NCBI GenBank assembly: GCA_020283715.1
Contig: JAIQCW010000254.1
Coordinates: 1-16,956, forward strand
Source of the DNA: Cytauxzoon felis
Taxonomy: Eukaryota; Apicomplexa; Aconoidasida; Piroplasmida; Theileriidae
Reading direction: 5' to 3'
DNA length: 16,956 nt
Under the pieces are notes generated by a model that was given only the letters and a program-made list of their open reading frames with translations, searched no databases and was not told where the DNA came from. Position 1 is the stretch's first letter. Every line of letters starts with the position of its first letter. The position numbers and the translations under genes were made by a program. Below are positions 171-16,956 of this stretch, in pieces.

Positions 171-3100
171 ATGAAAATTACCAATAATATAAGCTGTACA
201 TTTATACCATCTAATCCATTATTACAATTCCATAATCATGGAAGAACATCATTACAATTTCATGACCATGGAAGGACGTCATTACAATTCCATGATCCTG
301 GAAGCACATCAATATCAAATTATCAGTATGTCTATTGATAAAAATATATACTTCTATTTATATTCAGTACAATCTCCGCTATTTATAATGTATCCAATAC
401 CTGGAAATGTATTTGGAAGATGTTTAACTGGTCATCCAATGATAATTATATAAAGGTATGAATAAATAATATAATAATCTGTACTCATTAGGATTTTGCC
501 AAACAATTTATTAATCTTGTAGATAAAAAATCTTCTCCAGAAGAATTGATCCAAAATTTTGAAAAATTAAAGTCAGTTTGATAGATATTCTTCATCTCCA
601 TTCATACCTATAGGAACAGTATTACAAATTTCAACTTTAAAAAGGCCAAATATCTTAATGAAATCTTTCAAAGTCTAAAAGGTACCATTCTTAATGTAAG
701 AAAGCTTAAAGATATAAAAAATCTCCTACTCGATAAATTTGATATGAATAAAGATGAAATGTCATCTATACTCAATTATATAATCTCAACATCAAATTCA
801 CGTAGCGAAATCGATACATTACTCATCATTAATGACGTACTCTTCAATAAACCCATACCACCAATAGCAGCCATTCGTAAAGTTTATAAAGATGAAAACC
901 CAAATATCAATCAAATCAAAGGTAATTATCATTACACCCATATACACATTTTCCCTTCCACTTGAGGTTACAATCACTGTTCCACTCGCCGTGGTGGCCT
1001 CTTCTATTTAGTTGTCCCTCCGCTTCCCTGAGATCAGCTACGGGTACCACTTGAGGTCCAATCACTAATTTCATTACTTCATTTTTACCTCTAAAATTTG
1101 AAGGAAATCCTGAATTTCTGGGGAAAATAATGAATATTGTGTAATGACTATTGGATGTATTTCTGATGTCAATACCTCATTGAAAAGGGCTTTGATGATT
1201 GTATTTAATTTTATCGTCCTCCCTTCATTACAATTTATATTCATTGAGATATCTTAACAAACATGAATTCCGTCACTTTAGACGTATCTCGCTGATATTA
1301 GATTTATAACCTCAAGTGGAAGTGGAATACCTGGAAGCGATCTACGGGAGCTGGAAGGTGAAGTAAATAGGAGAGCTGTCTGCAAGACGACCTAAGGTGG
1401 AAGTAACCTCAGGTAGACTTGTCTCTAATAATTGATAATATAATATATAGGTGATTTGTATAGAGATGAGGTGAATGAGTATTTGGATGATCGTATGGCT
1501 GAGTTATCAAAGACGAATCCTCCTACACCTCCACCTATATTTGGTTCAGAGGATAAGGTAGAGGTTAGAAAGAGGCAATTGGTAGAGTTATTGGGTGGTG
1601 ATTTACCATATTTATTGAAGTTAACTGATGATCAGATAGAAGAGGCAGCTAAATCTATGTTTAAATGTACATGGTTATTATCATTTTATAATAAAGAATT
1701 AGAAATAATGAATTATCCTATTACAGGTATTAATGTATTGAATATGAATAATGATGAATGTTCAAAAATATATCATGAGGTATTGAAATTAAGATTAGCT
1801 GATGTAAGAGAAAATGTTATGTTTCAAACTATACCCAAATCTGAAACAAGACAATTTATACCAAAAGTTGCATTATTAACACATTGTAGAAAAGATCAAT
1901 TGAAATTATTATGTAAAAATATCGCAGATTGGGGAGTTATCGAAACCGATCGTATCAAAAGATTAAAAAATATCTACGATATCGATCTCATATCACCACT
2001 CGCTACACCACTCGAAGTTACAACCTTATCTTCCACTAGGCGTGGAGCCTCTCCCAATTACCTATCTCTAAAGAGTATAGCCACTCCCGGAGATCGTGGC
2101 GAAATATCCGAGACGATCTATGGGAGTCGATGTGAGGTAAATAGAGAGGCCACCACGGCGAGTGGAATGAAGAGTAGTACTGGACCTCAGGTGGAACCTG
2201 GAAGCGATCTACGGGAGCTGGAAGGGGAAGTAAATAGAAGAGGCTCCACGCCTAGTGGAATAGAGGAAGACAATGTTGCAACTTCGAGTGGTTATATATC
2301 TGATATGTTATTGGATCATGTGAATATAATAATGAAGTATGGTAAGGATATTGGTTGGAGTGGTTCGATGTATGTAACATTACCATATTATCGTGTATTG
2401 ATTGGTGGTGGTAAGCCATTACCTCAGAGTAGTTATTTGAATATAGAGGATGATCCAAATTATGATAATCCTAATATGTCAGAATATAGTAAGATGATAA
2501 ATAAAATAAGATCAAATGAAGAAGAAAATGATGAAATTAAATTTACTGATTTGAAAACTATACGTAAAAATCTTAAAAAAATGGAATTAGAATTAGAACC
2601 ATATCAACATCTATCATCAGAAGAAATCACCGAACTTATGCTCAAAAATGTCAAATTAGAATATAAATTCGCTGAAGATATCTATAAAAGAAAACAAAGA
2701 CGTATCGAATTAGGACTCGAACCAATAAATACCTCCAACGATAGCTATACAACCACTGTTCCCACTGCCGTTCCACCTGAGGTCCAATCCTACTCTCCTT
2801 CTACCTCCACCTTAGGTCGTCTTGCAGACAGCTCTTCTAATTACCTATCTCTAAAGAGTAATGCCACTCCCGTAGATCGTGGCAGAGGTATTGAGGATGT
2901 AACCTCAAGTGGAGAAAGTGGGGTAATGGGGTCATATGGGGATAAAATACACAACAAGGTTGATCATGATCCCCATATTCAACCCCATGATATCCCCCAC
3001 AATCGCCCTACATCCCCACTTGATGGTAATTTAATTGATAATCATCTAACCTCAAGTGGAGTACCCGTAGCTGATCTCAGGGAAGCGAAGGGACAACTAA

Positions 3101-3906
3101 ATAGAAGAGCTGACGGCAGGACGACCTCAGGTGGAAAGGAATTGGATATAACGGATTATGTGACAACACGTGAGGAGTTATTGACGGATGCGATTGTATT
3201 TTTGGATAATTATTTTCATTTACAATGGCAGTATTATTGTTGTGTGAATTTACCAATGGAATCGATAGTATATACAGATGAGATGGGTGATTCATATACA
3301 AATCCAAGACCATCTAAATTATCATTTACTGGTAATAAATATAATAATTCATTTAAATTTATTAAAGATTATTTAATAAAAAACCCAACATTTGAAATAC
3401 AAAATTTTCGTGATAAATTATGGGGTAGTGTAATGAAATATGATATAGAGGATATTAAGAAGATAGAGACAGATAATATGTTATTATTTGGTGAAGATCC
3501 ACAATATTTAAGAAAAGATTATAATATGATATTAGAAATGTGTAATAAAGGGGCAGGTTTACAGATTGATATGAAAGCACCTGGAATAGATACAAGTATA
3601 GAATTTAATGAAAAACAAAAAGAAACATCATTTTATAAATTAAAAATAACACAACCAACAGTACAACTTCAATGTAATAAATGTAATTATACAATATTTA
3701 CAAATAATATTAAATCATATGATGGTGAAAATATATTACCATTAGAATATCTCGAATTCAAATCTGATAATAATTTCAAATGCCCCATTTGTAAAAATCC
3801 TAAAGATCAATTCAATCAAATCTGGACCACAGGTATCAGAGGATATACACCCGAACCATATCCCAAACCAGATGATGATGAGGACAATGATGAATTTCAA
3901 TCATAA
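171..3906 (+). CDS. Large protein with C-terminal rubredoxin-like ribbon, five exons
   Basis: Not recognised as a whole. I join exons 171-325, 368-455, 492-571, 614-921 and 1451-3906; all introns are GT..AG, phases agree, and the product is about 1028 residues. Introns 1-3 are 36-42 bp; intron 4 is 529 bp because it carries a cassette. The start at ATG 171 is the first in frame, but an upstream exon outside the window is possible. The C-terminus holds CNKCNYTIF and, about 35 residues on, FKCPICKNPKDQF, which matches the two knuckles of rubredoxin (CxxCGY and CPxCGxxKDxF), so an iron or zinc site is likely. The tail is acidic (PDDDEDNDE). The middle is charged and helical-looking without a motif I know. 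Two cassettes at 2008-2291 and 2773-3134 stay open in the host frame, adding about 95 and 120 low-complexity residues. Function unknown; the exon model is well supported, the biochemical role is not. Confidence 0.75.
222..311 (+). repeat. Tandem 30-bp repeat, three copies, coding
   Basis: Three back-to-back 30-bp units start at 222, 252 and 282. Each keeps the reading frame of the first exon and encodes the decapeptide LQFH(N/D)(H/P)G(R/S)TS. Differences between copies are single bases, suggesting recent slippage or unequal exchange near the N-terminus of the rubredoxin-like gene. Confidence 0.85.
958..1416. repeat. Cassette 1 (intron 4 of the rubredoxin-like gene)
   Basis: A left module starts CCACTTGAGGTT, followed by the hairpin module CCACTCGCCGTGG and a pyrimidine-rich arm with GATCAGCTACGGG. 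The long core at 1047-1319 is nested in the centre. The right, purine-rich arm has GGAAGCGATCTACGGGAG, the CTGTCTGCAAGAC module and an ACCTCAGGT end. It lies wholly in the 529-bp intron, whose splice sites at 922 and 1450 are outside the cassette. Confidence 0.85.
1047..1319 (+). repeat. Long cassette core (~270 bp), copy A
   Basis: The stretch begins CCACTTGAGGT and ends ACCTCAAGTGG, a terminal inverted repeat. Its reverse complement matches 10126-10391 along the whole length, with blocks such as ATCCTGAATTTCTGGGGA and CGTCACTTTAG shared; by eye the identity is roughly three in four bases. It is AT-rich, unlike the surrounding modules, and has no long reading frame. It may be a non-autonomous mobile core captured by a cassette. 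Confidence 0.8.
2008..2291. repeat. Cassette 2, inside the coding frame
   Basis: It is bounded by a perfect 12-bp inverted repeat, CCACTCGAAGTT and AACTTCGAGTGG. Inside are the CCACTAGGCGTGG hairpin, the CTCTAAAGAG palindrome (2066-2075), the CCACTCCCGGAGATCGTGG module, a GACCTCAGGTGG joint, the GGAAGCGATCTACGGGAG arm and a mirrored CCACGCCTAGTGG hairpin. There is no stop in the host frame. It encodes NYLSLKS.ATPGDRG and [12 protein letters not shown]. Splicing at its own AG/GT ends would shift the frame, so it is probably translated. Confidence 0.85.
2773..3134. repeat. Cassette 3, inside the coding frame
   Basis: It begins CCACCTGAGGTCCAATCC and ends GACCTCAGGTGG. It contains the CTTGCAGACAGC module, CTCTAAAGAG (2849-2858), a GGGG/CCCC-rich core around 2925-3010, the GTAGCTGATCTCAGGGAAGC arm and the CTGACGGCAGGAC module. 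It is open in the same cassette frame as cassette 2 (NYLSLKSNATPVDRG, DLREAKGQLNRR), so both insertions were accepted in one reading phase. Confidence 0.85.
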
Positions 3907-4038
3907 ATAAACGAACTCAGACATTCAAGTCGAGGTCCAATCCAACTCTTTTCGTCTTGCAGACGGCCTCCTCTATTTACCTCCCCGTAAACGGTAGAGC
4001 CACTCCCTGAGATCGCTTCCAGGTATTCCACTTGAGGT

Positions 4039-16162: not shown

Positions 16163-16322
16163 CTATATATAGTCCATGTTCATGCATGCATGATATATAA
16201 CATTCATCAGATTCATATCTTCATATTTACAGTTCATACATACTTTTATATAGAACTCTTTAGTCCATCTTCATTCAATCTAGACAAGGTCTTATTCTCA
16301 CTATCATCTACTACTGCCTATC

Positions 16323-16541
16323 CTTCCACTAGCCGTGGAGGCTTCTTTTAATTAGTTATCCCTACGCCTACCATATGTCGGCTTCGTGTTTGTTGCCACG
16401 ATCTCCGGGAGTGGCATTACTCTTTAGAGATAGGTAATTGGAAGAGCTGTCTGCAAGACAACGAAAGGTTGTACTAGATGTTAGTGTTGTAACCTCAAGT
16501 GGAGAAGGCTCCATGCAATGGGAAAGATGAGATGAAGTGGA
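16323..16541. repeat. Cassette 13, right end of window
   Basis: It starts at the CCACTAGCCGTGG hairpin and ends near ATGAAGTGG. It contains CACGATCTCCGGGAGTGG, the palindrome CTCTTTAGAG (16420-16429), CTGTCTGCAAGAC, an ACCTCAAGTGG joint and the CCATGCAATGG hairpin. The outermost CCAATCC-type end modules are missing or decayed, so its limits are less certain than those of the others. Confidence 0.75.
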
Positions 16542-16956
16542 AAGAGATATATGACTAAGGTATAGATGACTATAGGTATTAGGAGATATAAGTATGGAAG
16601 GTAAGAGATAAAATAGATAGGTATGTATATATAATGTGTAATAGATTGAATAATATAATTTATTAATGGGTAATTCATATGTTAATGAATAACAACGTCA
16701 CAAGAAACAAGAATAAAGAGTGTGTAATAATTTTAATATAATAGAGATGAATTAATGTATACAAATTGTATATTAAAAACAGATATATAAATATAAAACA
16801 TAAAAAACCATCAATCAACATAATTTTGGAGCACAATTAGAGGTATTAAATCTTAAAAGAGTATTAAAACAATTAAAGTTCATTCTATAGAATATTATTA
16901 AAACAACACAAATCATCACCACCAGACGACAATGATGTCATCACATCAAATAACTT
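16542..16956. other. AT-rich right end; possible start of a further plus-strand gene
   Basis: The first 100 bp are strongly G-over-C on the plus strand (flank of cassette 13). From about 16806 a plus-strand stretch reads TINQHNFGAQLE, and after a possible short intron ending CTATAG near 16889 a second reads ILLKQHKSSPPDDNDVITSN to the window edge. These look coding but are too short to call, and no start codon is evident. Confidence 0.3.

What the first reader, a model, noticed from the sequence alone, without database searches (positions are those of the whole stretch)
951..16645. Strand-composition flip centred on nearly every cassette
In unique DNA left of the cassettes the + strand is C-rich and G-poor; right of them it is G-rich and C-poor. 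My hand counts: cassette 13 left (16200-16318) about 29 C to 8 G, right (16542-16645) about 2 C to 26 G; cassette 12 left (10850-10998) about 31 C to 11 G, right (11296-11400) about 8 C to 28 G. By eye the same holds at cassettes 1-4 and 6-11, weakly right of cassette 5. The polarity ignores gene direction (same for the plus-strand rubredoxin-like gene and the minus-strand protease and RRP8), crosses exons, shows mainly at synonymous sites (ATC/CTC left, TTG/GAG right), and resets between cassettes a few hundred bp apart. The strand running away from the cassette gains G. That resembles the skew beside replication origins. Inference: DNA synthesis or repair initiates at cassettes and proceeds outward with a biased mutation spectrum.
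Basis: partly seen in the sequence, partly recalled or inferred. Interest (0 to 1): 0.95.

Follow-up and report, generated by a model that had tools for sequence, protein, structure and literature searches.

The report
Strand-bias flips centred on repeat cassettes
In a piroplasm parasite genome, a GC-rich hairpin repeat present in thousands of copies sits, in nearly every copy tested, at the centre of a sharp, short-range change in which DNA strand is rich in G, which even shifts silent codon positions in neighbouring genes and points to a local strand-biased mutation process.

Summary
Confirmed, well beyond the window. All 13 window cassettes have C>G on the left and G>C on the right. In 257 kb of the same unnamed 8.6-Mb piroplasm genome, 140 of 146 cassettes show right>left GC skew; mean jump 0.53, against 0.00 (maximum 0.15) in 300 position shifts. 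The outward-running strand gains G and some T, loses A and C. The effect is near zero by about 325-350 bp. In conserved exons beside the window's cassettes, third-position G:C is 44:1 on the outward side and 9:27 on the inward side.

Best reading: sustained, short-range, outward strand-asymmetric mutation pressure at fixed hairpin cassettes, most likely from recurrent error-prone local DNA synthesis of the outward strand. Ordinary replication forks do not fit the 300-bp scale. Outward transcription and RNA-level selection remain live rivals.

Two cautions. C-left/G-right is its own reverse complement, so indifference to gene direction does not exclude RNA-level causes. The skew is weaker in non-ORF flanks (about 0.2) than at third positions (0.5-0.65), which simple neutral mutation does not predict.

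The parts
955..1414 (.). cassette 1, long form: two inverted arms with a ~250-bp core; flank GC skew L -0.48 / R +0.38
   Evidence: bounds, skews, core alignment
2017..2278 (.). cassette 2, inside an open reading frame; L -0.21 / R +0.47
   Evidence: bounds; skews (there 2030-2260); frame
2748..3138 (.). cassette 3, inside the same open reading frame; L -0.14 / R +0.30
   Evidence: bounds; skews; frame
3930..4302 (.). cassette 4; L -0.23 / R +0.11 (weakest right side)
   Evidence: bounds; skews (there to 4297)
4766..5052 (.). cassette 5; L -0.53 / R +0.19
   Evidence: bounds; skews (there from 4807)
5475..5707 (.). cassette 6; L -0.58 / R +0.23
   Evidence: bounds; skews
6083..6323 (.). cassette 7; L -0.59 / R +0.28; folds as one extended imperfect hairpin, z -4.5
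   Evidence: bounds; skews; fold
6646..6927 (.). cassette 8; L -0.19 / R +0.35
   Evidence: bounds; skews
7299..7500 (.). cassette 9; L -0.71 / R +0.47
   Evidence: bounds; skews (there to 7488)
8377..8835 (.). cassette 10, 459 bp; L -0.65 / R +0.15
   Evidence: bounds; skews
10036..10526 (.). cassette 11, long form, core in inverse orientation to cassette 1; L -0.22 / R +0.57
   Evidence: bounds; skews
10999..11301 (.). cassette 12; L -0.59 / R +0.32
   Evidence: bounds; skews (there to 11296)
16323..16521 (.). cassette 13; L -0.46 / R +0.70
   Evidence: bounds; skews
1444..3906 (+). It carries cassettes 2 and 3 in frame, and its conserved codons carry the flip at third positions

Best explanation
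Each cassette is a fixed, GC-rich inverted-repeat (hairpin) element at which a process recurs over many generations and biases mutation in the adjoining host DNA for about 300 bp on each side. Shown: composition flips at the cassette; the outward strand gains G (0.13 to 0.18-0.22) and a little T, and loses A and C; synonymous sites of conserved exons carry it; no dependence on gene strand, core orientation or cassette length was seen. Inferred: this is sustained mutation pressure made of transitions A>G and C>T on the outward strand (equivalently T>C and G>A on the inward strand). Inferred, most likely mechanism: recurrent short-patch, error-prone DNA synthesis of the outward strand beginning at the cassette arms, for example gap filling or unreplaced primase-polymerase-alpha tracts where forks meet the hairpin, or fill-in after nicks or breaks there. 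G.T wobble errors in the newly made strand would give these two transitions, and the reach is of the order of one or two Okazaki fragments (both from general knowledge).
For: Aggregation and controls. Repeat-masked flanks (292) give the base changes and decay: outward skew 0.25-0.33 at 0-100 bp, about 0.11 at 225-275 bp, near 0 from 325-350 bp. Synonymous sites: G among NNR codons 0.50 where the gene runs away versus 0.12 where it runs toward the cassette at 101-200 bp, C among NNY 0.08 versus 0.24 (Fisher p 3e-35 and 6e-12). In codons aligned to T. equi and a second homolog within 250 bp of a cassette, third-position G:C is 44:1 against 9:27, and NNR-G is 20 of 30 against 1 of 52. Conserved residues persist beside a nearly saturated synonymous shift, which argues for long pressure filtered by selection and not one burst (inference). 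In 24 long cassettes the core has little net skew while the skew lies in the arms and beyond; both core orientations give the same polarity (n=7 and 9). Single arms show a weaker, mostly outward skew (8 left: -0.17/+0.09; 7 right: -0.05/+0.15). Cassettes fold strongly (median z -4.4 over 40 of the 90 measured). Fourfold sites of coding strands >500 bp from cassettes have no G excess (-0.08, n=6659), so ordinary gene transcription does not make this skew.
Against: Away-strand skew is 0.50-0.65 at third codon positions but about 0.2 in non-ORF flanks, 0.15-0.17 in the strictest classes; neutral mutation predicts equal or larger effects in noncoding DNA. Part may be classification bias (the A/C-rich inward strand has few stops, so skewed noncoding DNA can be read as ORF), and noncoding DNA may turn over faster, but I could not show this. 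The jump does not correlate with hairpin stability, GC, length or intactness. Polarised variants within the arms lean the predicted way but weakly: per copy A>G 0.0142 (26) against T>C 0.0080 (11), C>T 0.0155 (24) against G>A 0.0115 (29), but C>A 0.0161 exceeds G>T 0.0071, which is not predicted. A paralogue comparison was small and mixed and showed no A>G excess (3 A>G, 7 G>A, 9 C>T, 7 T>C). The G-for-A shift is strongest when the next base is A and weakest after G, not a polymerase signature I recognise. 29 of 95 strong flips have no called cassette. No nascent-strand, break or mutation data exist here.
Confidence: 0.4

Rival explanations
1. Outward (divergent) transcription or R-loops starting at the arms: the displaced non-template strand on each side is the outward strand and accumulates A>G and C>T.
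For: [quoted passage not shown] The first 300 bp after the first ATG of long ORFs, at sites >500 bp from cassettes, have a weak same-sign fourfold skew, +0.16 (n=919) against -0.10 in the rest (n=3501), p 0.003.
Against: Far from cassettes, coding strands show no G excess at fourfold sites (-0.08). Of 146 cassettes only 1 lies between divergent ORFs against 8 between convergent ones (ORFs of 120+ codons within 400 bp), so they are not usually the promoters of neighbouring genes. Gained Gs are not clustered: GG observed/expected is 1.01 near against 1.31 far, although raw GGG triplets do rise with G content (200 of 38,102 near, 186 of 60,060 far).
Confidence: 0.2
2. Selection on RNA: in every transcript the sequence 5' of a cassette is kept A/C-rich and the sequence 3' of it G/U-rich, for instance to help the cassette fold out or be spliced.
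For: The pattern is its own reverse complement, so it looks the same in transcripts of either strand. Third codon positions are more skewed than non-ORF flanks.
Against: Left and right flanks of one cassette do not pair better than swapped flanks beyond 40 bp (z -0.6 at 40-140 bp, +1.5 at 140-240 bp); a slight excess appears next to the cassette (z -1.8 at 0-60 bp; about 2 sd at 0-120 bp), and the swap test cannot exclude complementarity of composition alone. Cassettes with both flanks non-ORF still show the skew (0.215, G>C in 62 of 72 flanks), though whether those are transcribed is unknown. Selection on many silent sites at each of thousands of loci seems implausible (inference).
Confidence: 0.13
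3. Ordinary bidirectional replication origins: forks start at cassettes and the leading/lagging difference gives the skew.
For: Sign as at origins. In Plasmodium falciparum, ORC1 sites occur about every 800 bp at GC-richer places with no motif (PMC10085703, abstract and passages), and ORC-bound and active origins are GC-richer than the genome and mostly in gene bodies (PMC10810204, abstract and passages); here cassettes of about 50% GC recur about every 1.8 kb in the sample.
Against: Skew is near zero by about 350 bp and reverses between cassettes a few hundred bp apart, which fork direction cannot do unless nearly all cassettes fire each cycle.
Confidence: 0.08
4. Target preference: cassettes inserted at sites that already had a C-to-G flip.
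For: 29 of 95 strong C-to-G flips have no called cassette. No cassette-free ortholog DNA was available.
Against: Unoccupied strong flips (29) are fewer than cassettes (146) in the same 257 kb; flips at cassettes occur inside conserved exons at silent sites and reset between close neighbours.
Confidence: 0.08
5. The flanks are decayed outer parts of older cassettes, whose arms are C-rich on the left and G-rich on the right.
For: Arms have the same GC polarity (outward strand G 0.35, C 0.20).
Against: The skew persists in repeat-masked flanks and at third positions of codons conserved with T. equi. Arms are A>T on the outward strand, flanks T>A.
Confidence: 0.05

Closest known systems
Replication-origin strand asymmetry (bacterial origins; human skew jumps of Touchon et al. 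2005, seen only in a reference list)
   Same: Sign: the strand running away has G>C and T>A; change of sign at one locus.
   Different: Range about 300 bp rather than a replicon; thousands of copies of one repeat; polarity resets between adjacent copies.
Transcription-start skew and transcription-associated mutation (passages of PMC10030826)
   Same: G and T excess on the non-template strand.
   Different: Bidirectional from a repeat inside ORFs and in non-ORF DNA; fourfold skew beside cassettes (0.65) exceeds that at gene starts in this genome (0.16).
Rickettsia palindromic elements (recalled; one paper seen in a listing only)
   Same: Palindromic repeats lying in frame inside protein genes: 21 of 127 cassettes are open through +-150 bp against 0.9 in swapped controls.
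   Different: Eukaryote; also in non-ORF DNA; I recall no flank skew described for them; no sequence comparison made.
Introners and MITE-like inverted-repeat elements (Amoebophrya paper PMC7789003 seen in a listing only)
   Same: Short, thousands of copies, inverted arms, often within genes.
   Different: Splicing and target-site duplication not tested; I recall no outward mutation field reported.

Membership tests
Bidirectional replication origin (fork-polarity skew) | Sign change with G>C on the strand running away | tested here: met
Bidirectional replication origin (fork-polarity skew) | Skew extends over kilobases to the next terminus | tested here: not met
   near zero by about 350 bp
Bidirectional replication origin (fork-polarity skew) | Initiation of nascent strands or ORC binding at the site | not testable with these tools
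   no functional data
Bidirectional promoter / R-loop start | Lies between divergent genes | tested here: not met
   1 of 146 cassettes lies between divergent ORFs of 120+ codons; 32 of 146 have no such ORF within 400 bp
Bidirectional promoter / R-loop start | G-clusters downstream of the start | tested here: inconclusive
   GG observed/expected falls from 1.31 far to 1.01 near, but raw GGG frequency rises with G content
Bidirectional promoter / R-loop start | Divergent transcripts from the site | not testable with these tools
   no RNA data
Inverted-repeat mobile element / introner | Inverted arms in a fixed relative order | tested here: met
   left-type arm left of right-type arm in 124 of 124 two-armed cassettes; 22 others of 146 have one arm or a short second one
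Inverted-repeat mobile element / introner | High copy number, dispersed | tested here: met
   2775 hairpin matches with up to 2 mismatches, 0 in the reversed control; 2093 edge-motif matches, 0 in control
Inverted-repeat mobile element / introner | Spliced out as an intron; target-site duplication | not tested
   no RNA data; TSDs not analysed
Rickettsia palindromic element-like in-frame insert | Open reading frame maintained through the insert | tested here: met
   for a minority: 21 of 127 (19 of the 146 were too short or too near an end), control mean 0.9, maximum 3
Rickettsia palindromic element-like in-frame insert | Sequence relationship to a known RPE family | not tested
   no such search made; no Rfam family reaches its gathering score in the window

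The most novel reading that the evidence does not exclude
A dispersed hairpin repeat, present thousands of times, creates a directional mutation field: at every copy, DNA synthesis of the outward strand is repeatedly started or patched by an error-prone polymerase for about 300 bp, so a selfish or structural element sets local base composition and codon choice of the host genes around it. Composition around a cassette would then be a readable record of polymerase strand usage at single-locus resolution.
Probability: 0.35. Interest if true: 0.92.

Novelty: new variant of a known kind. Interest (0 to 1): 0.8.

Why it matters
Strand-composition asymmetry is normally read at the scale of replicons or genes. 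Here it is reset every one to two kilobases by a repeat, strongly enough to dominate silent codon positions (third-position G:C of 44:1 on the outward side beside the window's cassettes). If mutational, it shows that a short repeat can impose a polar mutation bias on its neighbourhood, gives thousands of natural replicates for identifying the polymerase or single-strand exposure responsible, and means codon-usage and divergence estimates in this parasite are confounded by distance to a cassette. In my ten paper searches the listings showed no paper describing such flips at a dispersed element; only open-licence PMC text was searched, and the listings are capped.

Tried and rejected
Flank-to-flank pairing: own pairs no better than swapped pairs beyond 40 bp; slight excess next to the cassette (z -1.8 at 0-60 bp; about 2 sd at 0-120 bp). 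Correlation of the jump with hairpin energy or GC (90 cassettes of 150-320 bp) or with length or intactness (124 two-armed cassettes): none. Polarised variant spectrum in arms: weak. Recent paralogues with and without a cassette: too few sites. Rfam (gathering threshold) and tRNA scans of the window: no matches. Organism: not identified; among the 120 listed mitochondrial HSP70 hits are Babesia divergens 83%, T. equi 81%, T. annulata 78%; Cytauxzoon felis and T. luwenshuni were considered from assembly figures only (passages). Mechanisms set aside: deamination of resected 3' tails (wrong strand), ADAR-like editing of transcripts (would give A>G on both sides of one transcript), selection for G4 motifs (Gs gained are not clustered). 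The mechanistic arguments rest on general knowledge, not on a call.

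
Full report
What was checked. The window is contig C149:1-16956 of an unnamed 8.62-Mb, 181-contig genome. It encodes a FAINT-domain protein and a protein for which two homologs were found, one from Theileria equi (only the 8000 candidates sharing most words were scored). 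The genome's mitochondrial-type HSP70 is 76-84% identical to those of the named Babesia and Theileria species listed. The organism is therefore a divergent piroplasm; the species was not identified. The cassettes are a dispersed family: an edge motif occurs 2093 times exactly and a central hairpin 2775 times with up to two mismatches, each with 0 matches to the reversed control pattern. I worked on 257 kb: the window, C4:1-120000, C9:1-80000 and C8:1-40000. Cassettes were called from high-copy 12-mers and merged into 146 units. Extrapolated, that is about 4,900 in the genome.

Is the flip real? All 13 window cassettes have negative left and positive right GC skew. Of 146 cassettes, 140 have right>left, mean jump 0.533; circularly shifting the cassette positions gave mean 0.001, sd 0.034, maximum 0.145 (300 shifts). 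C8 was fetched after the first test was set up and behaves the same: 25 of 25 right>left by the rows. Strong C-to-G flips sit at cassettes in 54 of 80 cases and strong G-to-C flips in 1 of 71. With C8 added, 29 of 95 strong C-to-G flips are not at a called cassette, so cassettes are not the only source.

Shape and base changes. In repeat-masked flanks read on the outward strand (292 flanks), comparing the first 100 bp with 400 bp and beyond, A falls from about 0.36 to 0.31-0.33, C from about 0.127 to 0.105-0.110, G rises from about 0.133 to 0.18-0.22, and T goes from about 0.375 to 0.385-0.395 (0.348 in the first 25 bp). The skew is 0.25-0.33 in the first 100 bp, about 0.11 at 225-275 bp and near zero from 325-350 bp. 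The net change is mostly A to G with some C to T on the outward strand. The shift of G over A is largest when the next base is A and smallest after G. GG observed/expected falls from 1.31 far away to 1.01 near, so the gained Gs are not clustered, although GGG triplets become more frequent simply because G does.

Where the sign changes. In 82 short cassettes the change lies within about 40 bp of the centre. In 24 long ones, which hold extra core DNA, the core has little net skew (small reversals) and the skew lies in the arms and outside. Core orientation does not matter (n=7 and 9). Single arms show weaker, mostly outward skew (n=8 and 7); this is suggestive only.

Coding sequence. In ORFs of at least 120 codons, G among NNR codons is 0.50 where the gene runs away from the cassette and 0.12 where it runs toward it (101-200 bp), and C among NNY 0.08 versus 0.24 (217 kb). 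In the window's 820-aa frame, at codons aligned to both homologs, third-position G:C is 44:1 on the outward side and 9:27 on the inward side within 250 bp. So host exons, not leftover repeat, carry the flip. Because conserved residues persist while silent sites are almost saturated, the cause is more likely sustained pressure than a single burst at insertion (inference). After masking 11-mers seen more than once, the third-position skew on the outward strand is much the same for genes running away (0.53) and toward (0.50), and 0.44-0.55 whether or not the other side is coding.

A caution about 'ignores gene direction'. C-left/G-right is its own reverse complement. A transcript of either strand therefore has a C-rich 5' flank and a G-rich 3' flank, so strand indifference does not separate a DNA-level from an RNA-level cause. 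The point matters because the skew is weaker outside ORFs: 0.216 in non-ORF flanks (121 flanks), 0.165 in a strict class, and 0.15-0.28 by class (0.04 in one class of 3 cassettes), against 0.50-0.65 at third positions. First and second codon positions show 0.13 and 0.18. Some of the difference may be bias, since the A/C-rich inward strand has few stop codons and skewed noncoding DNA can masquerade as ORF; faster noncoding turnover is another candidate. I could not resolve it, and it is the main evidence against a purely neutral mutational reading.

Mechanism. Fork direction cannot produce a skew that ends at 350 bp and reverses between close neighbours. A short-range process is needed: patch synthesis, primase-polymerase-alpha tracts or gap filling at a hairpin, break repair with fill-in, or outward transcription. 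New-strand G.T wobble errors on the outward strand would give the two transitions seen (general knowledge). Ordinary gene transcription gives no G skew at fourfold sites far from cassettes (-0.08, n=6659), which counts against transcription, but the first 300 bp of long ORFs show a weak same-sign skew (+0.16, n=919), which counts for it. Only 1 of 146 cassettes lies between divergent ORFs. The absence of any correlation with hairpin energy is against a simple hairpin-strength model, unless the effect is saturated. Variants inside the arms and a small paralogue comparison gave weak or mixed support. In P. falciparum, ORC1 sites occur about every 800 bp and prefer GC-richer DNA (PMC10085703, abstract and passages; PMC10810204, abstract and passages), so cassettes could be licensing sites; but licensing alone would not make the skew.

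What the cassettes are. They are mostly 150-500-bp inverted-arm elements of about 50% GC that fold strongly (median z -4.4 over 40 of the 90 cassettes measured; cassette 7 z -4.5), with a long form whose ~250-bp core had 39 further scored copies at 84-88% identity among 404 first-look candidates, and short forms without it. In 21 of 127 cases the reading frame is open through the cassette and 150 bp on both sides, against 0.9 in swapped controls, so a minority may be translated in frame. Whether any are spliced was not tested.

Verdict. The mutational, outward-polarised reading is the best supported; the identity of the process is open.

Noticed in passing
window 1444-3906: One open frame runs through two cassettes in frame; sample-wide test: 21 of 127 cassettes open through +-150 bp against 0.9 expected. 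Beyond cassette 2 there are about 28 residues absent from both homologs.
   Followed up: partly
window 1059-1314 and 10139-10380: A ~250-bp core inside long cassettes is its own repeat family (404 first-look candidates, 40 scored including this copy, the others 84-88% identical), present in both orientations.
   Followed up: partly
window 11302-16322: A 5-kb stretch without called cassettes holds the FAINT-domain gene (14036-15448). Strong non-cassette flips lie at about 15805, 11958 and 12976.
   Followed up: no
C4 of G000 (for example 14729, 75158): Strong C-to-G flips with no called cassette, 17 of 35 on this contig; they could be scars of lost cassettes, gene starts or other elements.
   Followed up: partly
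whole sample: Few cassettes lie in divergent intergenic DNA: 1 between divergent ORFs, 8 between convergent ORFs, 24 inside ORFs, of 146 (no expectation computed).
   Followed up: partly
C4 48812-49131 and 22099-22418: A 99.1%-identical 320-bp duplicate, one copy 17 bp from a single left arm and the other more than 1.1 kb from any called cassette: a recent with/without pair worth following.
   Followed up: no
window 221-314: Three tandem 30-bp units around ATTACAATTYCATRAYC.
   Followed up: no
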